Assembly: GCA_027475525.1 (NCBI GenBank)
Contig: JAMWFC010000049.1
Coordinates: 4,882,947 to 4,946,946 of the forward strand
DNA: 64,000 nucleotides
Direction: 5' to 3'
From: Macrolepiota albuminosa
Taxonomy: Eukaryota; Basidiomycota; Agaricomycetes; Agaricales; Agaricaceae
Part shown: positions 2,431 to 60,392 of the stretch, piece by piece
Layout: every line of letters begins with the position of its first letter
How positions within the stretch are numbered: position 1 is the first letter of the stretch
Made by a program: the position numbers and the translations under genes
Notes under the pieces: generated by a model
What the model was told of the DNA's origin: nothing
What the model saw: only the letters and a program-made list of their open reading frames with translations
Databases searched by the model: none

Positions 2431-2906
2431 ATGCCAGGAATGAATGAGGCAGTCAGAATCCATATGGATCATATGCATGACAGCCTCACTTGACTGGTGG
2501 ATGACTCCTTAGGAGTCAGGTTCAAATTTCCTGCTGGGGTAAGCCCCCGCAAATCTGATGGTAAGCACATACATGCATATGCTGGAGGGCATAGGTTTTT
2601 CCAGCTGGAGGATTGGGCCATGGACATCTGTTACCATTTGGCAGCATGCTGCTATGGTGGAGATGATATGGACCAAGAGACAACCACCATGTCCTTCACA
2701 TTAATTGTGACAAATCACATTGGACATTTAAAGAGGTCCTGATAGGACTGTATAACCACTTTGTTAATACAGCAACAATGCAGGAAGCTCAGGATGCCTT
2801 TAGAAAGGCAGTGTATGATGCTAAGACTGGCATCCAGATATTTTATGATGACCTGGTGGGTCATGTGCAGAATATGGCCATCTATCCAGTCAAATACACA
2901 ATTTGT
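2431..2906 (+). pseudogene. Ty3/gypsy Gag (capsid) fragment, related to elements B and C
   Basis: Translation from about 2431 gives a capsid segment colinear with element B Gag: a VDDSLGVRFKF stretch, GKHIHAYAG, LEDWAMDICYHLAAC, then, after a deletion and frame change near 2690-2750, MQEAQDAFRKAVYDAK and HVQNMAIYP. B has the matching MQDAREAFIATSYTEQ and HAQNMSIYP. There is an in-frame TGA just before the VDDS motif. The match ends abruptly at about 2905, where the frame runs into the remnant of the antisense accessory gene, so this is a recombination or insertion junction. It is too short and broken to be functional. Confidence 0.75.
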
Positions 2907-3725
2907 GCCAAACAAGCTGCTGCTAAAGAGCGTGCTGAGGTCACTCTTTGCATTTTTCCCCCTCCACTTCTTTTCTAATTTCTCCCTTCCTTTCCAGACC
3001 TGCTGCTGTGATGAGGCTCATCATGCCCATGACCACCGCCAGGAGCGTGATAGTGATGTGGAAATGATGAGTGTGTCATCCCCTCATCCTCTCAAGTGCA
3101 AGACTAATGATGTGAGCACATTCTTCTATTTCTAGAGACCTAAATTGATGAGCTCTTCACGTGATTTGCTCATTTCTCTCTCTCCCTTCAGCCCACACCT
3201 GAGGCAGCACCCAATGCCAAGAGGCCTCAGTTTCAATCCTCAGTTGGTGTGTCTCTTTTTCTTTTATTACATAAACTAGGCTAATTTTTGCTACCCTCAG
3301 CTTTGTACTGCCCTGATGGCTCTTGTGCACAGACTCTTCTAGATGAAACCAACTGTATCCTTGCCAAAGATGGCAAAGTCTCCCATACCACTTTACATGA
3401 CTACCTTCAGATACTCGACGATGCCGCCTGTCAGCAGCTTTTCACTCTGGATCTTGCGCAACAGCGCTTCAAACAACTTGTCATGCGTTGCAAGGCTGTT
3501 TGGACCATACTCAATAACCAGGCTCTTTCCAATGCAGAGATCCGCATTGGAGAGCTTCAAGTTGGCTCTCCTTCCAAGTTGGTTCATCCTTCCTACTTGT
3601 TCTGCTCTGTCTTGCACTCCCTTACTCTGTTCTCCCAGCCAGCCATCAAAAGCCCAGATGTTGAGATTCCTGGGCTGGATTCTAAGACTGACAAGGTAAA
3701 CAATGCTATTGAAGCTACTTTGTAG
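2907..3725 (+). pseudogene. Decayed, 5'-truncated copy of the retrotransposon antisense gene (see 33386-34654)
   Basis: This plus-strand stretch is the counterpart, inside the minus-strand element A', of the six-exon gene at 33386-34654. It begins within exon 2 (KQAAAKERAE) and keeps exon 3 (HDHRQERDSDVEMMS), exon 4 (PTPEAAP), exon 5 (from YCPDGSCAQTLLDE to IRIGELQVGSP) and exon 6 (SPDVEIPG), ending near TAG 3723. All intervening introns are still present. Compared with the young copy, CpG sites are mostly TpG or CpA. Exon 1 and half of exon 2 are missing, replaced by unrelated gag sequence. Confidence 0.8.
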
Positions 3726-11112: not shown

Positions 11113-12008
11113 TATAGTACTTGGTAGAAGTATTACTTGATAGTTCTGGGGCTTGCTAGTGTAGAATATGACCTTGAATTCCCACTGACTTTGACGACAA
11201 AAGGGATAATTATTATCTTGAATGCGTTTAATAATTTTGCAAAATGCCAAGGTTTTGAGGAATTATAATATTGAATGAGAATAATAATATTCCCACAAGT
11301 CGAGGTTTCTTAACAAACTCCGGCCTAAGCAATTCACTCCCTGGGAATCACCGAGCCTTTGCCTATCAATTGCCTGCCTATTCTCTACTAAACTTGGGCT
11401 ATTTATACTGTTTTTCTGGTGCACAGACCACTATCTACATATGACTCTTTGTCAGAAACTCTCCCACTTCCAGAACATATGTATTTGATAGTCCAATTTC
11501 CCTTTTGGGAGGCCTGTTTCAGTGCCACCCGTTCCACCATTCTTCTGGATGTTTCAGATTGCCACTTCCCCATTTGCTTGAGCTCCATTTAGCATGATCC
11601 CATTCATAGATCCTTCTTTCCTCTTTTAGCGCCTCCCTGCATCACCTACTTCTTTTCTTTCCTCCTTCCGGTTATGTCAAATCGAACATTGGCTGATTTG
11701 ATGATAAAACTGAGAAATTATAATATTGAATGACAATAATAATTTCCCAATTTCATCCTATTCTGTCCATTGCCAGCTTCCATGCTTTTCCTCTCCATGA
11801 CAGTGGTTAGACTATTGTTGAGCTGATAGTTTGAACTGGTCCCTGCCTGTTGTTCTGTACTTTTCTGTGTATTTGTTGGGATGTTTTTGGAGATGGTTAT
11901 TTGTTGAGACTGCTACCAGGAGGCTTACAGTTTTCAGCCCATGATTAAATGTTTATTTTGACTTCTGGTGCATGGTGTGTCCCTGACTGCTGGTACAGCG
12001 TCTTATCA
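11113..12008 (-). repeat. Solo LTR of the A family with TCGA target duplication
   Basis: Reverse complement starts TGATAAGACGCTGTACCAGC and ends near AGTACTATA (mutated from TACTACA), matching the 846-bp LTR of element A along its length, with extra AT-rich segments. It is flanked by TCGA at 11109-11112 and 12009-12012. Removing the LTR and one TCGA rejoins the A' Gag codons around VDSGTSF in frame. No internal region is present, so it is a solo LTR left by LTR-LTR recombination. Confidence 0.9.
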
Positions 12009-12187
12009 TCGACTAAAATAGACACAATATTTATAACTTCCTTTAGATCATATCTGTCATCTTTGTGTCATCTCCTAGATACATCACTGTAATGTCCATA
12101 CTTTTGCAAGACTTGTGCTAAAATTAGTTCCTGGAATGCCAGTGTGAAGCACTTGGTAAATTTATCCACCAATGCTCCATTCCCTAG

Positions 12188-25068: not shown

Positions 25069-25914
25069 TGATACGACGCTGTACCAGCAGTCAGGGACAC
25101 AACATGCACCAGAAGTCAAAATAAACATTTAATTATGGGCTGAAAACTGTAAGCCTCCTGGTAGCAGTCTCAACAAATTATATCTCCAAAAACACCCCAA
25201 TAAATACACAGACAGTACAGAACAAAGGGCAGGGACCAGCTCAAGCTATCAACACAACAATAGTCCAACCACTGTAATGGGGAGGGGAAGCATGGGAGCT
25301 GGCAGAAGTGACGAAATGGGATCAATTTGTGATGATCTAGATCAAGATCAGATCTGACAATGCCCGATTTGACATGACTGAAAGGGGAAAGGAAAAGAAG
25401 CATGGAGGGATGTCAAAAGAAGCATGGAATGCAGGGAAGCGCTAAAAGGGGAAAGAAGGATCTATGAATGGGATCGTGCTAAATGGAGCTGAAGCAAATG
25501 GGGAAGTGGCAATCAGAGACATCCGGAGGAATGGTGGAACAAGAAGTTGAATGGTGGAACTGGTGGCACCGAAACATGCCTCCCAAAAGGGAAATTGGAC
25601 TATCAAATATGTTCTGGAGGCTGGAGAGTTGACAACAAAAGAGTCATGTGTAGATAGTGGTCTGTGCACCAGAAAAACAGTATAAATAGCCCAAGTTTAG
25701 TAGAGAATAGACAGGCAATTGATAGGCAAAGGCTCGGTGGTTTCCAGGGAGTGAATCACTTAGGCTGGAGTTTGTTGAGAACCCTCTGCTTTCAGGAAGA
25801 TTATTGAAAGCCTTCAAATATATCAATTTCATCATCAAGTCAGTGTGCACTGCAAGTAACCTTCTACACCATCAAGCCCCAGAACTATCAGTAATACTCA
25901 CACCAAGTACTACA
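25069..25914 (+). repeat. 5' LTR of element A
   Basis: Starts TGATACGACGCTG and ends AAGTACTACA. TATA box TATAAATA at 25681-25688, preceding a likely transcription start in the last quarter of the LTR. I see no difference from the 3' LTR when the two are read side by side. Confidence 0.95.
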
Positions 25915-26238
25915 TCTGGAGCCCACCGCGAGGGGCTTTGGCTTAGAAAGTTTACCAACAAGAAACACTGTCATCAAGTTCATTTGTGGACCAGCAAGTC
26001 AGGTTCACCTCAAGCTTAATTCAAGATTTCATTTGCACCAAGAGGGTCAACCCCAGAGAAGCTAAAGAGGACAGTGCCCAAGCAAAAGGTCAGTCCTAGG
26101 GAGCAAGCACACAAGCCCACTACCAGGAGCAGCAAGACCACCACACTCAATAGTGTTGGGGACCCTGAACAAGTCTTGAGATCAAGCAGAAAGCCAACAT
26201 CCAAAACTATCAAAATTACAAGTACAAATCTATCAAAT

Positions 26239-27510
26239 ATGCCAGAAGTTACAAGACAAAAATTGCCTCTGTCTACAAGCAGAGATGCACCTAGGTTCAC
26301 CCACACACAGCCCACTGAAGTCAGGCGCTTCCTCAGAAAGATGGAGAGTCTCTTCAAGGCTGCAGGGATTAATGATGCTGGGGAGAGGAAGGAGAGGGTG
26401 ACAGAGTATGTGGATGCAGAGACAGACAGTGAGTGGAGGGGATTGGACAGTTTTAGTGATGAGTCAAGTTGGGAGGTCTTTGTCAAGGAGGTCCAAGATT
26501 CCTACCCAGAGGCAATCTCTGATGAGGGGAGTGTGGCAGTACTTGACAGGATCTGTAGAGAGCATGCAAGGTTGGGACAGAATGACACAGAAGAGATCCA
26601 TGCACTGGTCAGAAAGTTTAGGGCTGAAGCCAAGAAGTTGAAGGGGGTGCTTGGGAATGGGGCACTGGTTGAGAAGTTCACTAAGTGCTTCATCCCAGCC
26701 TTCAGGGAACTTATTCTGGCCCAGGCCTTGCAAAAATATGGTCATTATAGTGACATAACCAGGAGGAGACACAAGGATGATAGATATGATCTGAAGGAAA
26801 TCATCAATGTGGTGGCTATTTTGGTTGATTCTGGAACCTCATTCAGGGACAATGACAGTCCACAGGAGAAGGTCCCAGGGATGATCAAGGTCAAGCAAGA
26901 GCCAGATTTGGAGACTGAGGGGAGGTTAGCTAACCTCCAGGATGGAGTCATGGCTCTGGGGAAGGAGATGAGCAGTCTGAGGGGGTTCATGCAGACCATG
27001 AACAATGAGTGGAAGGCAAAGAGCCAGGTTTCTATGCAGGGGGGTCTGCAGACTAGGATGGGGATGCCTACTCAGGCCTTGCAGACTGTTCAGTTTCAAG
27101 GAGGCAACAGTTCAGCAGCAGGAATAAACTGTTATCATTGTTGGGAGTTGGGACACAGGACCAATGACTGTGAATATCTCAAGACTCAAGTCCAAGAAGG
27201 CAAGCTCATCCTCTTTGAAGGCAGGCCTAGGCTACCTTCTGGGGATCCCATTCCCAGGAGTCCACCTAATGTGTCTCCCAAAGAGAGGGTCAATGCTATC
27301 ATGGATCCTAAGGCTGCTGCCTTCTATGGCTGGGTAGAAGAGCCAGTCACTATGGTGCCTAGTGTGTCTACCTATGTACAGGCAGTGCCCAAGGAGAAAG
27401 AGGATTTAGAGAAGAAGATAGAGGAGCTGCAGAACTTGGTGTCCAGTCTGATAACCACTAGGACTCAGACTTATGAGAAGAACACCCAGCAGAAGCAGGA
27501 GGGTTTTTAG
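26239..27510 (+). CDS. Element A Gag (capsid and nucleocapsid)
   Basis: 424 residues from ATG 26239 to TAG 27508-27510. The frame is open upstream to about 26040, but the first Met (MPEVTRQKLPLSTSRD) is conserved in A', so I use it. An N-terminal helical capsid region (VRRFLRKMESLFKAAGI, EFKYVD-type acidic helices, NGALVEKFTKCFIPAFREL) is followed by a coiled stretch and a CCHC zinc knuckle (CYHCWELGHRTNDC, near residue 300), then a Pro-rich part and a final helix (KEKEDLEKKIEELQNL). Packages element RNA in virus-like particles. Its last codons overlap a slippery heptamer. Intact. Confidence 0.9.
   Translation: MPEVTRQKLPLSTSRDAPRFTHTQPTEVRRFLRKMESLFKAAGINDAGERKERVTEYVDAETDSEWRGLDSFSDESSWEVFVKEVQDSYPEAISDEGSVAVLDRICREHARLGQNDTEEIHALVRKFRAEAKKLKGVLGNGALVEKFTKCFIPAFRELILAQALQKYGHYSDITRRRHKDDRYDLKEIINVVAILVDSGTSFRDNDSPQEKVPGMIKVKQEPDLETEGRLANLQDGVMALGKEMSSLRGFMQTMNNEWKAKSQVSMQGGLQTRMGMPTQALQTVQFQGGNSSAAGINCYHCWELGHRTNDCEYLKTQVQEGKLILFEGRPRLPSGDPIPRSPPNVSPKERVNAIMDPKAAAFYGWVEEPVTMVPSVSTYVQAVPKEKEDLEKKIEELQNLVSSLITTRTQTYEKNTQQKQEGF
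27501..27507 (+). promoter_or_regulatory. -1 frameshift site GGGTTTT at the Gag/protease junction
   Basis: The Gag frame reads GAG GGT TTT TAG, so G GGT TTT fits X XXY YYZ and abuts the stop codon. After a -1 slip, reading continues GGG TTT TTA GAG AAC TCA AGG ATG and enters the protease frame at 27522 without a stop. The same heptamer and spacing occur in A' (about 10431-10437, minus). Confidence 0.8.
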
Positions 27511-27521
27511 AGAACTCAAGG

Positions 27522-28526
27522 ATGGTGGCAGATGGAAGAGTCCAGCCTGAATTGAGGACACCATTACCACCTGAGAGTGATCTGAAAAGGCAAAGGGGAG
27601 TTATAGAAGTAGGCAAAGGGAACCTGCCCTTTGAGCAGGTGCCTGCTGTCAATGGAGAGAAAATAATAAAATTTCAAAATGACAAGAAAGAGCTGTACCA
27701 GCCCAGAGTTTGGCAGAGAAGGGAGGATGAGATTGTTAGCAAAATATTGGACAATGAGGTGACAATTTCTACAAGGGAATTGTTGAAGGTGCCAGCCTTG
27801 CAGGAGGCTATGGAGAAGACTTGGAGAAGGAGAGAAGGTGCTACCAAGTGGACAGCAGCCAAGGTCTTTGCACAGGAGGATAGAAGTGCCTCTGTAATGA
27901 GCCAGGTCAATATAGATGACTTGCCTCAACCAGGGTACCATATCTCTCAGAGTGAAGAAGAGGGGATTCCCAAGGGATCAGTGGTTCATGAGGACTGTGT
28001 GGCTACCTTCTTGGAACAGCTTCCACCAGGGAATAGACCAGAAGTGGTCTATGTGGCCAGAGACTTACAAGTGTTGAGGTCTCTGTACCCTAGTGTGAAT
28101 GACCAAGCTAAGGTAGAGGCTATATTGGACAGTGGGTCCCAGATTGTGTGCATGGCATTGGACAAGGCACTAAGTTTGGGATTGACTTGGGATCCTGATA
28201 TAAGGTTGCGCATGGAGAGTGCCAATCAACAGGTTAATGAGTCTTTGGGGATGGCCAAGAATGTGCCCTTCAAGTTTGCTGAGGGTTTCACAATATACTT
28301 GCAAGTGCATATATTTGAGAAACCTGCATATACAGTATTACTGGGGAGGCCATTTGATACAGCCACTGAGAGTAATGTGCAGAACTTGAAGGATGGTAGT
28401 GCAATTATCACTATCAGGGATCCTAATACTGGGAAGAGGACTGCACTACCAACTTATGAGAGAGGCAAGGCACCCCCTAGTGGCAACAAGGAGGAGTTGG
28501 GAAAAGCTTCAGCCTTGAGGAGTTGA
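27522..28526 (+). CDS. Element A protease frame (retropepsin)
   Basis: 334 residues in the -1 frame relative to Gag. The first 200 residues are a conserved but unfamiliar region (RELLKVPALQEAME, DDLPQPGYHISQSEEEGI, VVHEDCVATFLEQLPPG). An aspartic protease domain follows with the active-site loop AILDSGSQIVCM (about residue 204), and the flap and C-terminal strand around YTVLLGRPFDT. It would be made as a Gag-protease fusion by frameshifting, or start at MVADGRV. Cleaves Gag and Pol. Ends TGA 28524-28526, overlapping the RT frame. Intact. Confidence 0.88.
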   Translation: MVADGRVQPELRTPLPPESDLKRQRGVIEVGKGNLPFEQVPAVNGEKIIKFQNDKKELYQPRVWQRREDEIVSKILDNEVTISTRELLKVPALQEAMEKTWRRREGATKWTAAKVFAQEDRSASVMSQVNIDDLPQPGYHISQSEEEGIPKGSVVHEDCVATFLEQLPPGNRPEVVYVARDLQVLRSLYPSVNDQAKVEAILDSGSQIVCMALDKALSLGLTWDPDIRLRMESANQQVNESLGMAKNVPFKFAEGFTIYLQVHIFEKPAYTVLLGRPFDTATESNVQNLKDGSAIITIRDPNTGKRTALPTYERGKAPPSGNKEELGKASALRS

Positions 28527-30076
28527 TTCCAGATCAAGGAGAGGCTGCAGTAATGATAGAGGGGAGTGAGGAGGAAGGTTTCTGGATCAAGGGGTACTGT
28601 GTCAAGGAGAAGAGTTTTGAGCAGCAAGAACTCAGGGATGTGTACTTGGCTGCTTACCATGCTACTGGAAGAGAAGGAGAAAGGACAGGGCAGTTGCTGG
28701 GAGCTTACCTGAATGGAGAGCTAGGCTACCTACCTGAAGAGTTAAAGAGTGGGGGGGAGAAAAGCCAGGAGGAAACTGTACAAGTGTTTGGGAAATATAA
28801 GCCTGTTGCCAAGAAAGTTAGACCTGTGTTGGGTACTACACCAGAGGAGTTCAGGATAGAAAGGAATATCACTGGTGATCCTTTAAAGGACATGCCACCT
28901 TTGAGTCCACATCCACCTGAATTCAGACCTACTGGGAGGTACACAGAGGAGTGCAAACAGATTATTGACCAAGCACATGAAGGAGAGTTTCTATGGCCAG
29001 AAGAGAGGAAGTTACTGCACCAGCTGATGATGCAGCAGAATGAGGCCTTTGCATGGAATGACAGTCAGAAGGGGAAGTTCAAAGAGGAATACTTCCCACC
29101 TGTTGTTATGCCAGTAGTACCTCACCAGCCTTGGGTGTTGAAAAACAGACCCATACCTCCTGGGAAGTACAATGATCTGTGCAAGGAGATTAAGAGGAAG
29201 TTGGAAGCAGGGGTTTATGAGAGGTCAAACTCCTCATATAGATCACAATGGTTTGCTGTTCTGAAGAAGGATGGGAAAAGTCTAAGGCTTGTGCACAGTT
29301 TAGAACCTCTAAACAAAGTCACTATAGCTCATTCTGGAGTACCTCCTGCTACAGAAGAACTGGCCAACCACTTTGCTGGAAGAGCATGTGGTGGGATGTG
29401 TGACCTCTATGTTGGATATGATGAAAGGACTTTGGACCCTAAGTCTAGAGACTATACCACCTTTCAGACACCTTATGGAGCTCTGAGATTGGTGACATTG
29501 CCAATGGGATGGACTAATTCAGTTCCCATCTTCCATGATGATGTTACTTATATCTTGCAAGATGAGATACCTCATGTCACTTGGCCTTATATTGATGATG
29601 TTCCAATAAGAGGACCTGAGACTAGGTATGAGTTGGAAGGAGGAGGGTATGAGACTATTGCAGAGAATCAAGGGATTAGGCGCTTTGTATGGGAGCACCT
29701 GAACAATGTCAATAGAGTTGTTCAGCGCATCAAGTATGCTGGAGGAACCTTCTCAGGGACTAAGTCTGTGCTATGTGCAGATGAAATCACTGTAGTGGGT
29801 CACTTGTGTTCTTATGAGGGGCGCAAGCCAGAGACAAAGAGATATGCAGTGGTCATGAGTTGGGGAGACTGCCGCAATGTCTCTGAGGTTAGGAAGTTCT
29901 TGGGAACTTGTGGTACCTTCAGGATGTTCATCCAGGACTATGCCAAGATCTCAGAGCCTATCAATAGGCTCACTAAGGATGATGTGGCTTTTGTCTGGGA
30001 GGAAGAACAGAAGGAGGCCATGAAGGAGATGAAGAGGACTAGCAAGTTGTGCAGCTCTAAGACCTATAGACTATGA
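28481..30076 (+). CDS. Element A reverse transcriptase (frame ends early by 2-nt deletion)
   Basis: The frame is open from 28481, with no ATG needed if reached by frameshifting. RT motifs in order: SQWFAVLKKDGKSLRLVHS, DLYVGYDERTL (motif A Asp), LPMGWTNSVPIFHDDV and the catalytic WPYIDDVPIRGP (about 29585-29600), then the thumb (EVRKFLGTCGTFRMFIQDYA). In A' the frame runs on into RNase H through MKRRLASCAALRP. Here two bases are missing near 30038-30040, so reading leaves at MKRTSKLC and stops at TGA 30074-30076. All RT residues are intact but RNase H and integrase are out of frame. Confidence 0.9.
   Translation, partial: WQQGGVGKSFSLEELIPDQGEAAVMIEGSEEEGFWIKGYCVKEKSFEQQELRDVYLAAYHATGREGERTGQLLGAYLNGELGYLPEELKSGGEKSQEETVQVFGKYKPVAKKVRPVLGTTPEEFRIERNITGDPLKDMPPLSPHPPEFRPTGRYTEECKQIIDQAHEGEFLWPEERKLLHQLMMQQNEAFAWNDSQKGKFKEEYFPPVVMPVVPHQPWVLKNRPIPPGKYNDLCKEIKRKLEAGVYERSNSSYRSQWFAVLKKDGKSLRLVHSLEPLNKVTIAHSGVPPATEELANHFAGRACGGMCDLYVGYDERTLDPKSRDYTTFQTPYGALRLVTLPMGWTNSVPIFHDDVTYILQDEIPHVTWPYIDDVPIRGPETRYELEGGGYETIAENQGIRRFVWEHLNNVNRVVQRIKYAGGTFSGTKSVLCADEITVVGHLCSYEGRKPETKRYAVVMSWGDCRNVSEVRKFLGTCGTFRMFIQDYAKISEPINRLTKDDVAFVWEEEQKEAMKEMKRTSKLCSSKTYRL
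28499..28505 (+). promoter_or_regulatory. -1 frameshift site GGGAAAA at the protease/RT junction
   Basis: The protease frame reads TTG GGA AAA GCT, so G GGA AAA fits X XXY YYZ. The RT frame is open from 28481 and is the -1 frame here, giving GGVGKSFSLEELIPDQ. Conserved in A' (about 9582-9588, minus: CAACTCC-TTTTCCC context). Confidence 0.78.
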
Positions 30077-30095
30077 GTCTGAAGGTGCTGTCATC

Positions 30096-32255
30096 TTGGC
30101 AGTAGACACTTCTTGGATGGCTGTGGGGTTTGGGATCTTCCAAGAAGACAGTACAAATCCAAAACAGAGGACTTGTGCTAGACTGGGGTCCATTACCTTG
30201 AATGAGAGGGAGGCTAGGTTTTCACAACCTAAGAGAGAGTTGTATGGTCTTATGAGGGCATTACAAGTTAGCAGTTATTGGTTACTAGGGTGCAGAAAGC
30301 TTATCATTGAGAGTGATGCTAAATACCTCAAGGGCATGCTGAGCAACCCAGGAATAGGACCTAATGCTACTATAATGCGCTGGGTAGAAGCTGTACTTAT
30401 GTATCACTTCACCTTGAGGCATGTGCCAGGAAAGACTTTCAGTATGGATGGTCTATCTCGCAGGGAGAAGCAACCAGGAGATGAAGAGTATCCTCCTGTG
30501 GACTCATCTTTACTGGATGATCCAAAGCCAATGTCCTTTGAGTATCCAGATGAGATTAACAAAGTACCTGGCTGGGAGGAACATGTGCCCCTCAAGTTAG
30601 AGGACTTCATGGATGAGATTGATACAAGAGGAGGCTACTTGTTAGCAGTCACTCCAGAGGATGTACAAGAGGAAGTGAGGTTGGGTAGAGACAGAGAGCA
30701 AGGGATAGCCTTAGGCTTACAAGAGCAGAGTACTAAAGCAGGGACTACACTGAATCCAGTAGCAGTCTTAACTTTATCTACACTCTTGCTGCCAGACAAG
30801 CCCTCTGCCTCTACTGTAGAAGAGTACCAGGAAGAGAGGAGAACTGAGAAGGGGAAATCCTTAGATAACCTCTTACCCCTAGTACAGGACTGGCTTAGGC
30901 ATCCTGGAAAGGTACCCAGAGAGGTGAAAGAAGGACAATTTCTTAGATTTGCAAGGCAGTTCTTCTTTGATCTCAAGGGAAGGTTTTACAAGAGAGGAGA
31001 AGAGGGGAAGCACAAGCTAGTCATAGAGAAGGACAGGAGAATGTATATGCTAAAGTCTGCTCATGATGCACTTGGTCACAGAGGGACCTTTGCAACTAAA
31101 GCTTTACTGGAGGAGAGGTTTTGGTGGCCAGAAATGGAGGCTGATGTAAAGTGGTATATAGACACTTGTCATGCTTGCCAAGTTAGGCAGAAAGTTGCAG
31201 TATGCAGGCAGCCTGTGGTAGCCTATACTCCCAGTATATTTGAAACCATACACTTGGATACCATGCATATGACACCAAGTTCAAATGGGTGCAAGTATAT
31301 TGTACATGGGAGGTGTGCTTTAACCTCATGGATGGAGGGTAGACCTTTGAAGAAGGATAACCACAAGTTGATTGGGCAGTGGTTGTTTGAAGAAGTGATC
31401 TGTAGATGGGGCTGTATAAGCACCATTGTAACAGATAATGCTGGGCAGTTCACAAAAGTGGTACATTGGCTATCTAAGAAGTATGGGATACAGGGCATAA
31501 CTATTGCTCCCTATAATTCTAGAGCTAATGGGAGGATAGAGAGACCACATTGGGATGTGAGGCAGGCCTTGTATAAAGCCTGTGAAGACAGAACCAAGTG
31601 GTACTGGTTCTTTTGGCATGTAATGTGGGCAGACAGGATTACAGTTAGAAAGAGATTTGGGTGTTCCCCATTCTTCTTAGTAACTGGAGCACATCCTATA
31701 CTACCCTTGGACTTAGTGGAAGCCACTTGGTTGGTAGACTGGCCTGATGGACCAGTGTCTACAGAAGACTTAATTGGCTTAAGGGCTCAAGCACTGGCAA
31801 AGCACTACCAGCATGTGGAGGACATGAGGACTAGAGTTAGCAAGGAGAAGTTGAGATGGGCAGAGAACTTCACAAGAGAAAATGAAGCTTCTATTAAGGA
31901 GTACAAGTTCAAGCCAAGAGACTTAGTACTGGTTAGGAATATAGTGGCAGCTAAATCTCTAAGTGGGAAAATGTCTGCTCGCTATTGGGGACCTATGGTA
32001 GTGTTGACTAGGACTAAAGGAGGGAACTACATAGTGGCAGAGTTGGATGGTACTGTGTGGCAAGAGAGGGTGGCTGCCTTTAGGGTTATACCTTACAAGG
32101 CTAGGCAGCAAATCACTCTGCCTACCAGTATTGAGGAGTGGATTGATATTACTCCCTCTAAACTACAAGAGTTAAGGGAGGAGAAACAGGAAGGACAAGT
32201 GGAGGAAGACCTCTATCTCAGGGGTGTACACTTAGGAGAAGAACAGGAAGAATAA
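30096..32255 (+). CDS. Element A RNase H and integrase (out of frame with RT)
   Basis: 719 residues in one frame. RNase H shows AVDTSWMAVGF, QPKRELYGLMRAL, IIESDAKYLKGML and LRHVPGKTFSMDGLSR. After a long acidic linker comes the integrase HHCC finger (SAHDALGHRGTF, CHACQVRQK) and the DDE core (HLDTMHM, IVTDNAGQF, NGRIERPHWD). The C-terminal barrel follows (FKPRDLVLVRN, YWGPMVVLTRTKGGNYI). No chromodomain. The start given is only the first in-frame Met; the true protein would be the C-terminal part of Pol. Integrase inserts the cDNA with the 4-bp stagger seen in the target duplications. Confidence 0.92.
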   Translation: MAVDTSWMAVGFGIFQEDSTNPKQRTCARLGSITLNEREARFSQPKRELYGLMRALQVSSYWLLGCRKLIIESDAKYLKGMLSNPGIGPNATIMRWVEAVLMYHFTLRHVPGKTFSMDGLSRREKQPGDEEYPPVDSSLLDDPKPMSFEYPDEINKVPGWEEHVPLKLEDFMDEIDTRGGYLLAVTPEDVQEEVRLGRDREQGIALGLQEQSTKAGTTLNPVAVLTLSTLLLPDKPSASTVEEYQEERRTEKGKSLDNLLPLVQDWLRHPGKVPREVKEGQFLRFARQFFFDLKGRFYKRGEEGKHKLVIEKDRRMYMLKSAHDALGHRGTFATKALLEERFWWPEMEADVKWYIDTCHACQVRQKVAVCRQPVVAYTPSIFETIHLDTMHMTPSSNGCKYIVHGRCALTSWMEGRPLKKDNHKLIGQWLFEEVICRWGCISTIVTDNAGQFTKVVHWLSKKYGIQGITIAPYNSRANGRIERPHWDVRQALYKACEDRTKWYWFFWHVMWADRITVRKRFGCSPFFLVTGAHPILPLDLVEATWLVDWPDGPVSTEDLIGLRAQALAKHYQHVEDMRTRVSKEKLRWAENFTRENEASIKEYKFKPRDLVLVRNIVAAKSLSGKMSARYWGPMVVLTRTKGGNYIVAELDGTVWQERVAAFRVIPYKARQQITLPTSIEEWIDITPSKLQELREEKQEGQVEEDLYLRGVHLGEEQEE

Positions 32256-33385
32256 ATCAGTCTTCCTTAGGTTCTGGCAGAACTAGAGGGAGAAAGTGCA
32301 GAAAACATGTATTGGCATTGTACAATAACTAGTACAGTTGCTACAAACCAACTACATGGGTTTTGGACAGAAGTGGTGGGAATGAGAAGAGGGTTGGCAC
32401 AACGAGCACACGTTGTTACGCTGCTGACGTGCTGAGTCGCGCGTTCTTGGAAATGTGACCACGTACTGGTCACATTGACGTTAGCTGAAATCGTCGGTGC
32501 ACCTGCTTATGTAACGTGGTCGCGCGTACTGTCGGCGGCACGTTGGGCACATGTGGATGGATAAATGTGTGGTCAAAGTTTGCCAGTGCTGGACTCTGAA
32601 TAAGGGGAACAGGGCAAGGAATATATTGGTTGAACTACGGGACAAGACCCTGTGTCTACGGAGTAGCGCAAAAGAATTGAGGACTTGCGCACGAAAACGC
32701 GCTAAGTCAGAATTGAACGCGCGGTCCGCAGATCTACTGATGGGAGTCCACGTACAGTTGAAACGTAAAAAGCTGAAGGAGATGTCGTCCACAAGACGTC
32801 GAAAGCGAGTAAAAGGGGATAAGAAGAGGTGCAGGGGAGGCGAAAGAGTTCTGAGACAGCTGTGATCTCCCAGACGTGTCCGGATAATGGAACAGAGCAA
32901 AAGTTCCGTTGTTCCGCGTGATCGGAAGAACTTGATGGCAATGACCGAGAACTGAGTGGGAGGTGTGACGAGGGGTGGTCTCCCTGGCAAGGTGCCCATG
33001 GCAATAGAGGATGAGTAAGGGAGACAGGGAGTGAAGCTAGGAGACGCACACCAAGCGGTCAGTGTGGGGGGAAAAACAAAGAGTTACCCCACACGATCGG
33101 ATAAAAAGGGAGCCGAGTAGTGGGAATGACGGTCCGAGGTGGGGGAAGCGAAAAGAAGCAGGCTTCCCCGGGTGATCGGAACGACGGGAAGAAGCTGAAA
33201 CAAAAATAGCGAGCCGAAAAGAAGTGCTGGCGGCTCGGATCATCGGATCAGCAGGGCTGATCATGATCGATCAAGAAGACTTACATCACTACTACGTCAC
33301 GCAAATTAAAGGCGTCGAACTCAAGTTATTGCGCGAGGAAATTAAGTCTATTGGGCAGCGTAGTAGTAACGAATATACCGTGTAA
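32256..33385. other. CpG-rich spacer of element A with a perfect 10-bp palindrome
   Basis: Lies between pol and the 3' end of the antisense gene, and present in A' too, so it belongs to the element. AATGTGACCA (32452-32461), loop CGTAC, TGGTCACATT (32467-32476) is a perfect inverted repeat. The plus-strand frame 32551-32865 is basic and unlike any family, and I do not call it. CpG is abundant here, in sharp contrast with the gag-pol part. Confidence 0.7.
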
Positions 33386-34654
33386 CTACAAGGCTGCCTC
33401 AATAGCATTATTTACCTCGTCCTCCTTGGAATCCGGCCCAGGGATCTCAACATCCGGGCTTTCGACGGCTGGCTGGGAAATAGAAGGAATGAGTGCGAGA
33501 CGGAGCAGAGAAAGCTAAAGAGAACGAACCGATTTGGAAGGAGAGCCGACTTGGAGCTCTCCGATGCGGATCTCTGCATCGGAAAGAGCCTGATTATCAA
33601 GGGCAGTCCGTACGGCCTCGCGACGCGCAACAAGTTGCTTGAAGCGTTGCTGTGCGAGATCCAGCGTAAAAAGTTGCTGGCACGCGGCGTCATCGAGTAC
33701 CTGAAGGTAGTCGCGAAGCGTAGTACGAGAAACTTTGCCGTCCTTGCCTAGAATGTGATCGGTTTCGTCGAGGAGAGTCTGTGCACAAGAGCCATCGGGA
33801 CGGTACGAGGCTAAGACAGCAAAAATGAAATGGGTTTTGTGTGAGAAAGGAAAAAGAGACGCACCAACAGAGGATTGAAACCGTGGCCTCTTGGAGTCGG
33901 GTGCTGCCTCAGGCGTGGGCTGGAGAGAAAGCGAAAAATGAGCAAATCGCGTGAACAATTCGTCGATTTGAATCTCTGAAATGGAAGGAAGCTCACGTCG
34001 TTAGCCTTGCGCTTGACAGGACGGGGAGATGACGCACTCATCATCTCTACGTCGCTGTCACGCTCCTGGCGATGGTCACACACACGGCGGGCATCCTCAC
34101 GGCGGCGGGTCTGGAGCAACAGGAAGGGTGAGAAGGGAATGGTGATGGACAAAGCAAAGAGTGACCTCAGCGCGCTCTTTGGCTTCGTGTGCAGCTTGTT
34201 TGGCAGCTTCTTCGGCACGGCGATCATTGATTAATTTAAGAATCGAGTCCGCAAAAATACACCAATTTTTGATATTGGAAGAAGTCTGGGCAAGTCGACG
34301 TTCGATGCGGTCCTGGACCTTGTAGAGAATGTTGTAAAGGCCAGACTGCTCAGCAATGAGGGGGAAGTCGGAGTGATCCACAAAGTTCTGGGGGCAATGC
34401 ATACAAAGTTAAATTTGGAACAAGCTCCAAAAATAGAAACAACGCACAAGTTCAGCTGCTCCGACATGCCGGGATACTAGAATCGGTGCCTCTTTGGCAA
34501 GAGCTTCCTCACAGAGACGTGTGACAGCAGTGCTAAAGGCGGCAATATATTTGACGGATTTTATTTGTTGATCCTTGTCCCGGATGATGGCGCTTTCAAG
34601 GAGAGAATAAGGGTCAGGACCAAGGGGTCTTTTAGGACCAGTAGGAGGAGCCAT
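33386..34654 (-). CDS. Antisense accessory gene of element A, six exons, 321 residues, unknown function
   Basis: Exons on the minus strand: 34448-34654, 34166-34387, 33997-34110, 33865-33919, 33530-33810, 33386-33472. All five introns (54-77 nt) have GT-AG ends and phases fit exactly. Residues 1-69 are helical (YSLLESAIIRDKDQQIKS). 70-143 are a long helical, partly coiled region (YNILYKVQDRIERRLA, RRAEEAAKQAAHEAKERAE). 144-200 hold a charged, Ser/Pro-rich hinge with NLS-like PVKRKAND and SKRPRF. 200-293 are helical again (DGSCAQTLLDETDHILGKDG, LQVLDDAACQQLFTLDLAQQ), with an acidic tail. I recognise no domain. It reads toward pol, starting 213 bp from the 3' LTR, with TTTAAA about 40 bp upstream of its ATG. 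Introns persist because the genomic RNA carries them antisense. A decayed copy is at 2907-3725. Confidence 0.82.
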
Positions 34655-34867
34655 GGGGGGAATGGTGAAGTGAGGATGTGGTGGACAATAAGGAGGGTTT
34701 AAATGGCCTTTGGAGCGACAGGGGAGGCAGCAAAAACATGCAAAAGAAACCTCACAACATTACAGGAGGTTCAGACAAAAATGTTGACATTATGGCAAAG
34801 AAATGGGACTTAACCTAATCTGGAACTGTGAATGACTGAGGACAGTCTTTATTTGGTGGGGGGGAGA

Positions 34868-35713
34868 TGATACGACGCTGTACCAGCAGTCAGGGACACA
34901 ACATGCACCAGAAGTCAAAATAAACATTTAATTATGGGCTGAAAACTGTAAGCCTCCTGGTAGCAGTCTCAACAAATTATATCTCCAAAAACACCCCAAT
35001 AAATACACAGACAGTACAGAACAAAGGGCAGGGACCAGCTCAAGCTATCAACACAACAATAGTCCAACCACTGTAATGGGGAGGGGAAGCATGGGAGCTG
35101 GCAGAAGTGACGAAATGGGATCAATTTGTGATGATCTAGATCAAGATCAGATCTGACAATGCCCGATTTGACATGACTGAAAGGGGAAAGGAAAAGAAGC
35201 ATGGAGGGATGTCAAAAGAAGCATGGAATGCAGGGAAGCGCTAAAAGGGGAAAGAAGGATCTATGAATGGGATCGTGCTAAATGGAGCTGAAGCAAATGG
35301 GGAAGTGGCAATCAGAGACATCCGGAGGAATGGTGGAACAAGAAGTTGAATGGTGGAACTGGTGGCACCGAAACATGCCTCCCAAAAGGGAAATTGGACT
35401 ATCAAATATGTTCTGGAGGCTGGAGAGTTGACAACAAAAGAGTCATGTGTAGATAGTGGTCTGTGCACCAGAAAAACAGTATAAATAGCCCAAGTTTAGT
35501 AGAGAATAGACAGGCAATTGATAGGCAAAGGCTCGGTGGTTTCCAGGGAGTGAATCACTTAGGCTGGAGTTTGTTGAGAACCCTCTGCTTTCAGGAAGAT
35601 TATTGAAAGCCTTCAAATATATCAATTTCATCATCAAGTCAGTGTGCACTGCAAGTAACCTTCTACACCATCAAGCCCCAGAACTATCAGTAATACTCAC
35701 ACCAAGTACTACA
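34868..35713 (+). repeat. 3' LTR of element A
   Basis: Same length and apparently the same sequence as the 5' LTR. Followed by the ATGG target copy at 35714-35717. Also lies upstream of the antisense gene and could serve as, or contain, its promoter in the reverse direction. Confidence 0.95.
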
Positions 35714-48148: not shown

Positions 48149-48163
48149 GCGTTTGATCCACGA

Positions 48164-50038
48164 ATGCCTGCTGAGTGGAATGAGCTAGTGGCATCGATGT
48201 ATGCGTGGAATGGACCACAATGGACGCCAAATGAGGAGTCATATCATCAGGCTAGTGATGATGAGATATTGCCACCGAGTGAGGTATTCTTCGACGGACT
48301 GTCTGTGACGTTGCAGAGAAGCAAAAAGGAAGTGCCTGTGCGACTGCACACGCCGGATGACAGTGAGCTGAGGATTACTGCCCTCAGAGAGAAGTATGGC
48401 TGCCCAGCCGTACAAGCAAAGCTGTCCGGGCATTCACGGAAGGACGTGGACCGGAAGGGCAAAGGTAAAACCAGTGGTTTTACGAAGGAGGAGATTCCAG
48501 ACCTACGCTCGCAGTGGCAGCAGGAATTTGGGGATATTCTGAATGGAACCAAGGAGGAGTTACCTCCTTGGCGTGAGGTCAATCATGAAATCAACCTTAT
48601 TGATGAGAATAAGGTGTATAAATATCATTTGCCACGATGTCCAATGGCGCTACAGCAGCAGCTCCGAGACAAGACCAATCGGTACCTGAGAGCCCACTGG
48701 TGGGAGGCCCAACCGGCCTCCCAAGCTGCTCCGCTATTGTGCATTCCGAAGAAAGATGGTACATTGAAAACAGCGTTGGATGCTTGCCAACGCAACGACA
48801 ACACCGTAAAGGACGTGACACCACTTCCAGATCAGGAAGTGATTCGAGAGGATGTGGCAAGAGCAAAGTTCAGGTCAAAAATTGACCTGACGGATGCTTA
48901 TGAGCAAGTGAGAATTCGCTTGTCTGATATCCCGAAGACAGTGTTCTCGTCGATCACGGGAACATATGTGAGCAACATCATGCAGATAGGAGATTGTAAT
49001 GCTCCTGCAACATTTCAGAGGTTGATGACCTCCATCTTCCGGGATGTTATTGGGAGGTTCATCCATATATATTTGGACGACATATTCATATACTCCGATT
49101 CAATTGAAGAACACAAAGAGCATCTTTGTGTCATTTTTGAGCGACTGAGGTCTAATCTGCTGTACCTCAAGTGGAAGAAATCTGAACTATATGCCGAGAC
49201 AGTAGATTGCCTCGGACACAAGATTGACAGTCAGGGTATTCACCCTGACCAGGACAAAATCGATCGCATATGCGAATGGCATGTGCCTCATAACTATAAC
49301 GATGTGCGGAGATTCGTGGGACTAGTGAACTATATCAGCAACTGTCTGCCTGATATTACAGCGTATACTGGACCTTTGATGTCCATCACGCAGAACGGAG
49401 CTCCATTCATATGGAGACCTATACACCAATGCTGTTTTGAGATGATCAAGAGGATCTGCTCAAAGACGCCAGTCATTTGTCCTATAGATCCCAGATGTGA
49501 TGAGCCAATTTGGCTCATCTGTGATGCCTCAAAGACCGGAGTAGGAGCAATGTATGGCCAGGGAAGTTCCTGGCAGAATTGTCGACCGGCTGGGTTCATG
49601 TCGAGGAAGTTCACCTCGGCCCAACAGAATTATGCGGTCCATGAGCTCGAAACGCTGGCGATACTTGAGGCACTCCTCAAGTGGGAAGACAAATTGATGG
49701 GATATAAGATCCACATCATTACGGACCATAAAGCACTTGAGTTCTTCAAAACTCAAGCAACGTTGTCCCCCCAGCAACGCCGGTGGATTGATTATATGTC
49801 TCGCTACAACTTTGACATCACATATGTCAAAGGCGAACTGAACAAGGTAGCCGACTGTCTCTCAAGGTATTTCGAGAGCGATAGAGTTGGTGAACACCAT
49901 GATACGCATGATTATGTCGATGCGGATATTTGTATTGATCCACAGGGCAATGATCTTCCATACCATTGCTACAGAGAGGTGAAGGAGCATGTGGTCGAGC
50001 TTCATGCTATGCAAGCAACCGAGCTGCGACGCAGTTGA
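48164..50038 (+). CDS. Element B reverse transcriptase and RNase H
   Basis: 624 residues without a stop. RT: AAPLLCIPKKDGTLKTALD, SKIDLTDAYEQVRI, NIMQIGDCNAPATFQRLM and the catalytic IYLDDIFIYSDS. RNase H: PIWLICDASKTGVGAMYGQG, NYAVHELETLAILEALLKW and HIITDHKALEFFKTQ, then YVKGELNKVADCLSR. All catalytic residues seem present. In the element frame it is bounded by TGA 48146 and TGA 50036. It has no in-frame ATG of its own family context, so expression would need readthrough, reinitiation or an unknown route. Probably a decayed copy with a still clean RT. Confidence 0.85.
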   Translation: MPAEWNELVASMYAWNGPQWTPNEESYHQASDDEILPPSEVFFDGLSVTLQRSKKEVPVRLHTPDDSELRITALREKYGCPAVQAKLSGHSRKDVDRKGKGKTSGFTKEEIPDLRSQWQQEFGDILNGTKEELPPWREVNHEINLIDENKVYKYHLPRCPMALQQQLRDKTNRYLRAHWWEAQPASQAAPLLCIPKKDGTLKTALDACQRNDNTVKDVTPLPDQEVIREDVARAKFRSKIDLTDAYEQVRIRLSDIPKTVFSSITGTYVSNIMQIGDCNAPATFQRLMTSIFRDVIGRFIHIYLDDIFIYSDSIEEHKEHLCVIFERLRSNLLYLKWKKSELYAETVDCLGHKIDSQGIHPDQDKIDRICEWHVPHNYNDVRRFVGLVNYISNCLPDITAYTGPLMSITQNGAPFIWRPIHQCCFEMIKRICSKTPVICPIDPRCDEPIWLICDASKTGVGAMYGQGSSWQNCRPAGFMSRKFTSAQQNYAVHELETLAILEALLKWEDKLMGYKIHIITDHKALEFFKTQATLSPQQRRWIDYMSRYNFDITYVKGELNKVADCLSRYFESDRVGEHHDTHDYVDADICIDPQGNDLPYHCYREVKEHVVELHAMQATELRRS

Positions 50039-51096
50039 CGACTGCAGGAGCGGCAAGAAGGGCAAGACATAGAAGCTGAGCAATTAGAGCAGGCTTGGCC
50101 AAAGGAGGTGACAATGCCATGCCAGGGCAAGACTGGGAGCAGTCATGGACCGTATGGCCATGACTTTACGCTTGCTGACACATTATCACCTACAGGAGAG
50201 TATTGTAACCCTCCTGTTCCTCAAACCAATGAGTACCTCCGGAAGGTACTGAGGGGCTATAGCCACGATGCGTTCTACACAGAAATCCGGCAGAACGCAA
50301 ACTCCCACCCATGCTTCAGCATGGATGAGAAAGGACTGGTCTGAATAACGAATGTTTGAGGGCACGACGTAGTGTGCTTACCATGCGACCAAACATTAAT
50401 CATGCAGGTTGTCACTCAAGCGCATGAGGTTGTTGGTCACTTTGGGACCAACAAAACACTGGAATACCTGAGGCAATGGTACTGGTGGCCTCAGATGCAG
50501 AAAGAAGTGATGCAGTTCTGCCAGACCTGCGAGGCCTGCCAGCGGTCAAAGACCAGCAATAGGAAGCCAGCAGGGAAGTTGCATTCCTTGCCCATCCTGA
50601 CAAAGCCGTGGGACTCCATTGGGATGGACTTTGTTGGTCCATTTCCTGAGTCCAAAGGTTATAACTACCTTTGGGTAGTTATTTGCCGAATGACTAGTAT
50701 GGTGCACTTGATACCGGTGCACACAACCATTACTGCGTCCACATTATCCTGGCTCTATTTGAAGGAGATTGTAAGGCTACATGGCCTTCCAAGTTTGATC
50801 GTGAGCGATCGAGACGCAAAGTTTACGTCTCATTGGTGGCGAGAACTCCACAAGCTCTTGGGAGCTAAGTTGCTTATGTCTACATTGTTTCATCTGCAGA
50901 CAGATGGACAGACAGAGCGAGCAAATAGAAGTATTGCTCAGATCTTTCGTACGGTGGTCCGACTGGACCAATGCAACTGGGTAGATAGGATACCGCTAAC
51001 CAAGTTTGCGATCAACGCGAGTGTGTCAGAGACCACAAAATATGCGCCATTTGAGCTCAATGGAGAGTACATGCCCTCCATGCTGCGCGAACTAGT
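50039..51096 (+). pseudogene. Element B integrase, C-terminus lost
   Basis: Same frame as RT. After TGA 50342 and 50357 it shows the zinc finger (QAHEVVGHFGTNKTLEYL, FCQTCEACQRSK) and the DDE core (SIGMDFVGPFPES, LIVSDRDAKFTSHW, LQTDGQTERANRSI). It ends FELNGEYMPSMLREL, then switches at about 51096 to sequence adjoining the LTR. The C-terminal barrel and chromodomain that C still has are missing. Breakpoint looks like a recombination. Confidence 0.85.
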
Positions 51097-51117
51097 ATTC
51101 GGTCTCATTGAGAGGTA

Positions 51118-51291
51118 TGTAACGGAGTCACACGTAGTACTAGCATCAACGACGCTATAATTATCTAGTAGAGTATTATGTAAGACAACATCTTGTTTTC
51201 ACTCTAAGTACTAGTCAAATCTGATACTGTGGTCTGATTTAGCACTTGTGTGATACACACAAGATAGTTCTAACTCGTAACTCAGGTTACA
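51118..51291 (+). repeat. Short gypsy LTR (174 bp), 3' end of element B
   Basis: TGTAAC...GTTACA, with a family member at 13471-13639 that shares about 30 bp of upstream sequence (GGTCTCATTG-purine run-TA). This marks it as a 3' LTR preceded by a polypurine tract. It differs strongly from the proposed 5' LTR of B, so B may be a chimera. Confidence 0.7.
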
Positions 51292-58961: not shown

Positions 58962-60392
58962 GGAAATGAGCACTGAGTTGTGAAATGCCAAGGCCTTAAC
59001 CGAACAAAGTGAGGTTGAGGCCGGGAATGAGCACTGAGTTGTGAAATGCCAAGGCCTTAACTGAACAAAGTGAGGTTGAGGCTGGGATTAAGCACTGAGT
59101 TCTCTATACATACTTGGAGCTCTAACCGAACGAAGTGAGGTTAGGGTGGAGGCTTAGTTGGGGGGGGGGGTTTGGGGCTACAAAATTCATGCCAAAGACA
59201 CGAATCGTAGCTTGTATAGAATGGGACAACCGTTTCATGGGAATTATTGATTAGTCAGTTCTGACTAAGGCTGACAAAGAATTGCCTTTTTTGTTTGTTT
59301 TCAATGAATGTTGGTAGATAATGCTTAAAAATTTCAGATAAAATCACTGAAAAATCAGAAATAATTCCAGGCCTACTGATACACAGATTTTAGTTTTTTT
59401 TTGGAGATTTATAAATGCTTAATGAAATCTGAAAAATTCAAGAAAAATTCAATTGCTCTATTTTGCAGAAGATGTTAGTAGAAAATGCTTAAAGAATTTC
59501 TGGAAAATCACTGAAAAATCAGGAAAAATTTAAAGAATACTGATACACTGATTGTTAGTTTTTTTGGTATTTATAGATGGCTAAAGAAATCTAAAGAATT
59601 CAAGAAGAATTCATTTCAGCTTACAATAATACTTTGAAAGTTGAGGAAAACTGGGAATGAGCACTGAGCTGTGAAATGTGGAGGCCTTAACCGAACAAAG
59701 TGAGGTTGAGGCTGGGAATGAGCATTGAGTTTTCTATACATACTTGGAGCCCTAACCGAACAAAGTGAGGTTAGGGTGGAGGCTTAGTTGGAGGGGGTTT
59801 GGGGGCAAAGCCCCCAATGAGCTACGAAATTCATGCCAAAGGCACGAATTATAGCTTGTCTATAGTATATGCGACGACTTTTGTGGGAATTTGATATGAT
59901 GACTAAGGCTGACAAATACTTCCTTTTTTGTTTGTTTTTTGGTAGATGTGTGTATAAAATGCTTAAAAGTTCAAAGAAAATCACTGAAAAATCAGGAAAA
60001 AATCAAGGCCTACTGATACACTGATTTTAGTTTTTTGGAGATTTATAAATGTTCAATAAAATCCGAAGAATTCAAGAAAAATTCAATTGCTCTGTTTTTC
60101 AGAAGATGTTAGTGGAAAATGCTCAAATAATTCCAGGAAAATCACCAGAAAATCAGGAAAAATTCAAAGTCTCCTAATATACTGATTTTTTAGTTTTTTA
60201 AAGATTTATAAATGCTGAATAAAGTCCAAAGAATTCAAGAAAAATTCAATTTAGCTTACTTTGAGAGTTGTGAAAAGGGGACTGAGTTGTTAAATGCCGA
60301 GGCCTTAACCAAACGAAGTGAGGTTGAGGCCAGAAATGAGCACTGAGTTGTGGAATGCCGAGGCCTTAACCGAACGAAGCGAATCAATGACA
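58962..60392 (+). repeat. Hairpin-rich repeat array with AT-rich spacers
   Basis: A unit of about 61 bp (GAGCACTGAGTTGTGAAATG, then GCCTTAACC-GAACAAAGTGA-GGTTGAGGC) occurs at 58968, 59029, about 59658 and twice at 60280-60392. A longer variant carries CCCTAACC-11 nt-GGTTAGGG (59750-59776) followed by GGGGGCAAAGCCCCC (59801-59815) and an imperfect AATTCATGCC-AAA-GGCACGAATT hairpin; a first copy lies at 59100-59210. Spacers hold AT-rich repeated words (TTTATAAATGCTTAATGAAA, AAATTCAAGAAAAATTCAAT). Not coding. Nature unknown. Confidence 0.75.

What the first reader, a model, noticed from the sequence alone, without database searches (positions are those of the whole stretch)
33386..34654. LTR retrotransposon carrying a six-exon antisense gene between pol and the 3' LTR
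Seen: a minus-strand gene with five GT-AG introns and exactly fitting phases (321 residues) lies wholly inside element A, and a decayed copy with the same exon order and the introns still present lies at the same place and orientation in sister element A' (2907-3725). Position and orientation conserved in two copies means it travels with the element. Introns can survive retrotransposition only because the genomic RNA contains them in antisense. Known: plant Ty3/gypsy and Ogre-like elements can carry antisense extra ORFs. I know of no described fungal case with a spliced antisense gene. The protein (helical, with NLS-like patches) matches no family I recognise. It could be a captured host gene, a silencing suppressor or a regulator of the element.
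Basis: partly seen in the sequence, partly recalled or inferred. Interest (0 to 1): 0.88.

Follow-up and report, generated by a model that had tools for sequence, protein, structure and literature searches.

The report
Spliced antisense gene inside a retrotransposon
A mushroom-type fungus carries a jumping element with an extra gene written backwards between its own genes and its right end; the gene keeps five introns, and apparently two alternative splice forms, through many rounds of copying, so it looks like a real and selected part of the element whose job is still unknown.

Summary
Element A (LTRs 25069-25914 and 34868-35713, identical over 846 bp, 4-bp target duplication) carries a minus-strand gene at 34654-33386: six exons, five GT-AG introns, 321 residues. 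Of 21 near-complete copies aligned, 17 are open throughout; among those, 0 of 20 splice-dinucleotide columns vary versus 141 of 263 interior intron columns, and median dN/dS is 0.15. (1) Intron 3 hides a second, overlapping intron (34037-33976): 57 nt inside 'intron 3' read in frame without indels at dN/dS 0.05, so the gene very probably makes two mutually exclusive isoforms. (2) A sister element family (63-70% identical RNase H-integrase) carries a 32%-identical antisense gene in the same place; in the one copy modelled, intron positions match, both intron-3 variants included. The gene was lost by deletion at least three times, once in a lineage still recently mobile, so it is dispensable in cis. 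Relatives were found only in Lyophyllaceae. Antisense genes at this place are known in plants and in fungal Boty (brtn): a new variant of a known kind. Expression and function are untested; a nuclear regulator is my guess.

The parts
25069..25914 (+). 5' LTR of element A
   Evidence: 846 bp identical to the 3' LTR; ATGG on both outer flanks
26020..27510 (+). gag-like ORF (stop to stop) with a CCHC zinc-knuckle pattern
   Evidence: ORF; no Pfam hit; knuckle seen in the translation, motif recalled
27477..28526 (+). protease ORF
   Evidence: Pfam Asp_protease_2
28481..30076 (+). reverse transcriptase part of pol
   Evidence: RVT_1, below its curated cut-off; in A the frame is interrupted near 30030, intact frames exist in other copies
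30033..32255 (+). RNase H-integrase part of pol
   Evidence: RT_RNaseH and Integrase_H2C2
32256..33385 (.). fast-diverging spacer between pol and the antisense gene
   Evidence: 1097-1241 bp in the 14 copies aligned; no ORF of 80 or more codons common to them
34448..34654 (-). exon 1 of the antisense gene (ATG at 34654)
   Evidence: 21-copy alignment
34388..34447 (-). intron 1
   Evidence: GT-AG
34166..34387 (-). exon 2
34111..34165 (-). intron 2
   Evidence: GT-AG
33997..34110 (-). exon 3, isoform 1 (carries the basic KRK cluster); in isoform 2 it would end at 34038
33920..33996 (-). intron 3a, removed in isoform 1
   Evidence: GT-AG
33976..34037 (-). intron 3b, overlapping alternative removed in isoform 2
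   Evidence: donor GTGCGT/GTGTGT in 21 of 21 copies, acceptor AG in 20 of 21; matching public models P0009, P0010
33920..33975 (-). coding segment found only in isoform 2, inside 'intron 3a'
   Evidence: 57-nt codon block without indels, dN/dS 0.05 over 17 copies
33865..33919 (-). exon 4
33811..33864 (-). intron 4; recurrent recombination border with exon 4
33530..33810 (-). exon 5, C-terminal module circulating as at least five old allele groups
33473..33529 (-). intron 5
   Evidence: GT-AG
33386..33472 (-). exon 6 with stop codon
34698..34703 (-). TTTAAA, candidate TATA element of the antisense gene
   Evidence: present in 20 of 20 gene-bearing copies aligned, TTCAAA in the two C93-type gene-less copies aligned; pattern only
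34854..34867 (+). polypurine tract before the 3' LTR
   Evidence: sequence
34868..35713 (+). 3' LTR of element A
2905..3724 (+). decayed partial copy of the antisense gene in element A' (end of exon 2 to exon 6)

Best explanation
It is a genuine accessory protein gene of a Ty3/gypsy-type LTR retrotransposon clade, written antisense between pol and the 3' LTR. Inferred mode of action: it is transcribed from its own promoter between the 3' LTR and its ATG, and the host spliceosome removes five introns. Two mutually exclusive versions of the third intron give two isoforms that share the N-terminal helical domain and the C-terminal module but differ in the linker: a basic, NLS-like segment (isoform 1) or a short hydrophobic-patterned segment (isoform 2). 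The protein acts in trans, most likely in the nucleus, to tune expression or replication of the element family. Because the sense RNA is what is reverse transcribed, the introns, antisense to it, pass through each cycle intact. Shown: a coding gene with conserved introns, purifying selection, linkage to the element, age, loss in some lineages. Inferred: transcription, splicing, nuclear site, regulatory role. My odds: 0.97 that it is a real selected spliced gene, 0.85 that isoform 2 is real, 0.4 for a nuclear regulator; the confidence given is for the whole.
For: 17 of 21 copies open, splice sites fixed, dN/dS median 0.15; isoform-2 segment dN/dS 0.05 and fixed alternative donor; public models in Termitomyces for both forms; homologous gene with matching introns and both intron-3 options in a sister-family copy, same place in 16 of 28 sister loci by search; TTTAAA in 20 of 20 gene-bearing copies aligned and changed in C93-type gene-less ones; basic clusters KRK and KRPR; gene-less but recently moved copies point to action in trans or a non-essential role.
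Against: No RNA or protein data. C1 has identical LTRs, so moved recently, yet its gene is broken; C93, C74 and C68 moved recently without the gene. No known domain or fold. NLS and TATA are patterns only; gene-less C88 keeps TTTAAA. Intron 1 is nearly as conserved as intron 3 (mean p 0.147 and 0.127), so low divergence alone would not show coding; the frame-specific dN/dS does. C124, open for isoform 1, has lost isoform 2.
Confidence: 0.5

Rival explanations
1. Silencing suppressor: the protein counteracts host silencing (RNAi or chromatin) in trans, so gene-less copies can free-ride.
For: Old, selected, trans-usable; gene-less copies coexist with gene-bearing ones. Antisense transcripts could feed small RNAs (argument of PMC7264820 section 8).
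Against: No RNA-binding or silencing-related family or fold found. Nothing specific points to it.
Confidence: 0.2
2. Copy-number control: the protein restrains its own family, as truncated Gag does for Ty1 (PMC7175516 passages), and gene-less lineages are escapees.
For: At least three independent losses, one with recent spread (C93, C74, C68 with identical LTRs).
Against: Gene-bearing copies also moved recently and form the larger group seen, 25 against 9 with 3 unresolved.
Confidence: 0.15
3. Captured host gene carried as a passenger or for host benefit.
For: Spliceosomal introns are typical of host genes; capture in antisense would preserve them (inference).
Against: In the own genome the listed matches are repeats or fragments, none recognised as a stand-alone host gene; the listing is capped. 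Database relatives: 18 proteins, 12 Termitomyces and 6 Tephrocybe rancida (candidates capped in 31 and 50). Present in two element families. As the ultimate origin it stays possible.
Confidence: 0.1
4. Only the antisense RNA matters, the reading frame is incidental.
For: Antisense RNAs regulate some LTR elements (PMC7264820 section 8).
Against: Frame-specific selection in the exons and in the isoform-2 segment; exon indels only 6 and 12 nt among intact copies.
Confidence: 0.02

Closest known systems
Plant antisense additional ORFs between pol and 3' LTR (aORF-3R: Grande gene23, RIRE2, Retand, PvRetro13; PMC7264820, PMC11963269)
   Same: Same place and orientation, present in most copies of a family, own upstream promoter (Grande), nuclear protein in one case (Grande), function unknown
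   Different: Here five introns and probably two splice forms; unrelated by Pfam (no TRP28); basidiomycete host. The words intron and splic in these two papers concern other things or are absent in the passages seen
Boty/BcGypsy1 of Botrytis cinerea with antisense gene brtn (reported in PMC7264820, PMC8365987, PMC4227169)
   Same: Fungal LTR element with an additional antisense gene between pol and 3' LTR
   Different: Ascomycete; gag-pol there is reported with a CHROMO domain (PMC4227169 passage), none found here by Pfam. Sequence and intron status of brtn could not be seen
HTLV-1 HBZ and APH proteins of related viruses (PMC10186651 passages)
   Same: Antisense gene at the 3' side, spliced and unspliced forms giving two protein variants, nuclear regulator of the element's transcription
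   Different: No bZIP family hit here; candidate promoter lies between LTR and ATG rather than in the LTR; five introns; no sequence relation seen
Sister element family B in the same genome
   Same: Homologous antisense gene, same place, matching introns in the copy modelled
   Different: 32% identical protein, longer proline-rich N terminus, RNase H-integrase 63-70% identical

Membership tests
Ty3/gypsy LTR retrotransposon | Domain order protease, RT, RNase H, integrase between LTRs | tested here: met
   RVT_1 is below its cut-off and the integrase core was not listed at E up to 0.01, the H2C2 domain was
Ty3/gypsy LTR retrotransposon | Short target duplication and polypurine tract | tested here: met
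   ATGG on both flanks, GGTGGGGGGGAGAT before the 3' LTR; 4-bp repeats also at other copies
Antisense additional gene (aORF-3R type) | Antisense coding region between pol and 3' LTR | tested here: met
Antisense additional gene (aORF-3R type) | In most copies of the family, conserved as protein | tested here: met
   25 of 37 pol loci, 9 without, 3 unresolved; dN/dS 0.15
Antisense additional gene (aORF-3R type) | Own promoter | tested here: inconclusive
   TTTAAA in 20 of 20 gene-bearing copies aligned; no RNA ends
Antisense additional gene (aORF-3R type) | Nuclear protein | not testable with these tools
   Basic clusters only
HBZ-type antisense gene | bZIP domain (HBZ itself; APH-2 to 4 lack it per PMC10186651) | tested here: not met
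   No bZIP in Pfam at E up to 10
HBZ-type antisense gene | Promoter in the 3' LTR | not testable with these tools
   Needs 5' end mapping
Boty/brtn | Homologous BRTN protein | not tested
   BRTN sequence not at hand; the paper is not held
Boty/brtn | gag-pol with CHROMO domain | tested here: inconclusive
   No chromodomain at E up to 0.01, but the same scan also missed the integrase core, so its sensitivity here is limited

The most novel reading that the evidence does not exclude
An LTR retrotransposon clade has kept, since before two element families split, an antisense regulatory gene with five introns and a mutually exclusive splice switch that trades a nuclear-localisation-like linker for another segment; its C-terminal module circulates as an exchangeable set of old alleles, and gene-less elements live off it in trans: a retroelement with a host-like, alternatively spliced regulator.
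Probability: 0.35. Interest if true: 0.85.

Novelty: new variant of a known kind. Interest (0 to 1): 0.72.

Why it matters
What antisense accessory genes of LTR elements do is an open question (so stated in PMC7264820 and the abstract of PMC11963269). Here the gene is old, codon-selected, apparently spliced, intact in many young copies and absent from other recently mobile copies of one genome, so presence and absence can be compared as natural experiments. The conserved alternative intron makes a concrete prediction (two junctions) that one RNA data set can test. It also illustrates how antisense placement lets introns survive repeated retrotransposition: in the one sister-family copy modelled, introns 1, 2, 3b and 4 keep column and phase at about 30% protein identity.

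Full report
Where it lies. The window is G000:C114:4882947-4946946 of an unnamed 100-Mb genome in 129 contigs. The 18 database relatives of the protein come from Termitomyces (12) and Tephrocybe rancida (6) (in only about 8000 candidates were scored), both Lyophyllaceae, Agaricales, so the host is probably a related basidiomycete; this is inference. Element A has LTRs 25069-25914 and 34868-35713, identical over 846 bp, flanked by ATGG on both sides, with gag-like, protease, RT and RNase H-integrase frames in Ty3/gypsy order. In A the RT-integrase frame is interrupted near 30030; of 19 elements compared (A included), 7 have one 1258-codon frame and 5 more have 1254-1265 codons.

The gene. Splicing the minus strand from 34654 to 33386 at five GT-AG introns gives 321 residues. 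The own genome gave 44 matching rows for this DNA (40 of 55 candidates scored, so a lower bound). I aligned 21 near-complete copies. Seventeen are open from ATG to stop; C58 and C44 have one internal stop, C53 is frameshifted and has lost an acceptor, C1 has an internal duplication. Among the 17, none of 20 splice-dinucleotide columns varies against 141 of 263 interior intron columns; over all 21, 1 of 20 against 159 of 263. Exon indels among the 17 are 6 and 12 nt; a third gap of 77 only faces the duplication in C1; introns show 22 distinct gap events, of which some may likewise face insertions in broken copies. NG86 dN/dS has median 0.15 (range 0.08-0.34) over the 123 pairs with dS above 0.1. 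A versus C106 is 0.12, bootstrap 0.08-0.17. Pooled ratios by frame are 0.18 in the true frame and 1.41, 1.95, 1.03, 0.29 and 2.58 in the other five; the 0.29 frame is on the opposite strand, has 8-10 stops in the three copies checked, and is still above the true one. Young copies (identical LTR pairs) alone give the same picture: among pairs with dS above 0.1 the ratio is 0.11-0.26; A and C90 differ by only 4 nonsynonymous and 2 synonymous changes.

A second splice form. The public models disagree at one place: most full-length Termitomyces models read ...VEMMSVSSP..SKRK.ND..., while P0009 and P0010 read ...VEMMKMQIN.LFTRFSLFSLSHQ...; P0011 shows a third join, perhaps a model error. In the window this corresponds to an alternative intron 34037-33976 that overlaps intron 3 (33996-33920), so only one of the two can be removed. 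The alternative donor is GTGCGT or GTGTGT in 21 of 21 copies, the acceptor AG in 20 of 21 (AA in C124). Isoform 2 (326 residues in A) is open in 16 of the 17 intact copies; C124 has a stop in it. The 57-nt codon block unique to isoform 2 has no indel in 17 copies (12 distinct sequences), dN 0.026 and dS 0.569 (ratio 0.05), whereas shifted frames give dN 0.148 and 0.139 with dS 0.042 and 0.051. For a supposed intron this is strong evidence of protein coding. Mean divergence alone would not show it: intron 1 is nearly as similar (0.147) as intron 3 (0.127). Isoform 1 carries the basic cluster KRK at 176-178; both isoforms keep KRPR. Tephrocybe models P0013, P0014 and P0016 resemble isoform 2 here, P0015, P0017 and P0018 read through both segments. 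Splicing itself is not observed, since no RNA was available.

Age. A protein search with the RNase H-integrase frame gave 60 scored rows of 3547 candidates: 32 rows of family A and 28 loci of a sister family at 63-70% identity (counted by hand). With the Tephrocybe protein P0014 as query, 16 of those 28 have a match (E up to 1e-3) about 0.9-1.6 kb beyond pol on the opposite strand (hand tally); the other 12 showed none at that threshold, which does not show absence. One of those 12 (C126) was read directly (L062): it has the gene, with introns of 53, 52, 76 (3a) or 49 (3b), 71 and, chosen by hand as the best-fitting option, 67 nt. Aligned to A at 32% identity (288 positions, isoform 1; 30% for isoform 2), introns 1, 2, 4 and 3b fall in the same columns and phases, 3a differs by one column, intron 5 by ten columns in a gappy tail. 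So the gene, its introns and the splice alternative appear to predate the two families. An old copy on C24 lacks the middle of the gene but keeps spacer and upstream region in the usual order. The P0012 model of Termitomyces sp. J132 joins residues matching the antisense protein (63%) to residues matching this integrase (52%), which suggests the same association there; it may be a model error.

Linkage and loss. Of 37 pol loci that reach the pol 3' end (40 of 141 candidates scored), 25 have the gene or part of it beyond pol on the opposite strand (two of them 12-14 kb away, presumably split by insertions), 9 have a read junction from pol to the stretch before the 3' LTR without it, and 3 are unresolved (hand tally). 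Gene-less C88, C95:1.33M and C13 share one junction and keep a remnant of the first bases of the gene, as do, with a longer remnant, C114:1.38M and C114:1.72M; C93, C74, C68 and C86 have a third junction: at least three losses, two of them plainly from gene-bearing ancestors. Of 17 LTR pairs compared besides A, 11 are identical: gene-bearing C90, C114:6.35M, C64, C114:1.27M, C71, C114:3.78M, C1 and C106, gene-less C93, C74 and C68; C86, C58, C95, C95:1.33M and C94 differ and none was found for C88. Both kinds have therefore moved recently. The gene is dispensable in cis but kept by selection where present; help in trans is the simplest reading (inference). C1, with identical LTRs and a broken gene, fits that.

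Mosaic. Against A, elements of a second type differ in the gag N-terminal part (74-86%), spacer, gene (about 80%) and LTR, yet share the protease-to-integrase block at mostly 94-100%, with some tiles at 84-93%; pol dS is at most 0.12 among the 21 pairs of the 7 intact frames, median dN/dS 0.064. Within the gene, exons 1-2 are 96-100% alike within each type, but exon 5 falls into at least five groups, 71-88% alike between groups (C124, which stands apart, 64-83%), and similarity in exon 5 does not follow type. The change begins near the exon 4/intron 4 border in separate pairs such as A versus C114:1.27M and C95 versus C106. Exon 5 has pooled dS 0.89 and ratio 0.11, so these look like old alleles under constraint moved by recombination, not fast positive selection. 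Whether the diversity is itself selected is open.

Promoter. TTTAAA at 34698-34703 is present in 20 of 20 gene-bearing copies aligned; among four gene-less copies aligned it reads TTCAAA in the two of C93 type, is cut after TTTAA in C95:1.33M, and is intact in C88. It is a candidate TATA element by pattern only.

Comparison with print. Nothing that I saw there describes a multi-intron or alternatively spliced antisense gene in an LTR retrotransposon, but I saw mostly listings and passages, and subscription papers, Zhao et al. 2011 included, are not held. I file it as a new variant of the antisense-accessory-gene kind, not as a member of the HBZ or brtn families.

Noticed in passing
about 27115-32115 versus the rest of element A: The protease-to-integrase block is nearly the same in two element types whose gag N-terminal part, antisense gene and LTRs are far apart: pol seems to have been exchanged between types.
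   Followed up: partly
33530-33864: Exon 5 exists as at least five old allele groups that recombine onto near-identical exons 1-4, with a recurrent border at exon 4/intron 4.
   Followed up: partly
L016-L019 (C93, C74, C68, C86): A gene-less lineage of the same family; C93, C74 and C68 have identical LTR pairs, so it moved recently.
   Followed up: yes
L061 (C24:536400-538900): Old copy lacking the middle of the antisense gene (about residues 43-180) with spacer and upstream stretch in the usual order; C95:1358605-1359226 and C110:4723748-4724253 look similar by coordinates.
   Followed up: no
48149-51157: A different, apparently Ty3/gypsy-type element with RT, RNase H and integrase (rve found by Pfam).
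   Followed up: no
58962-60199: Direct repeats of about 145-169 bp in three copies each, 61-92% alike to the reference copy.
   Followed up: no
11114-12010: An LTR-like stretch sits among gag pieces of element A' (blastn order), suggesting a nested or rearranged copy.
   Followed up: no
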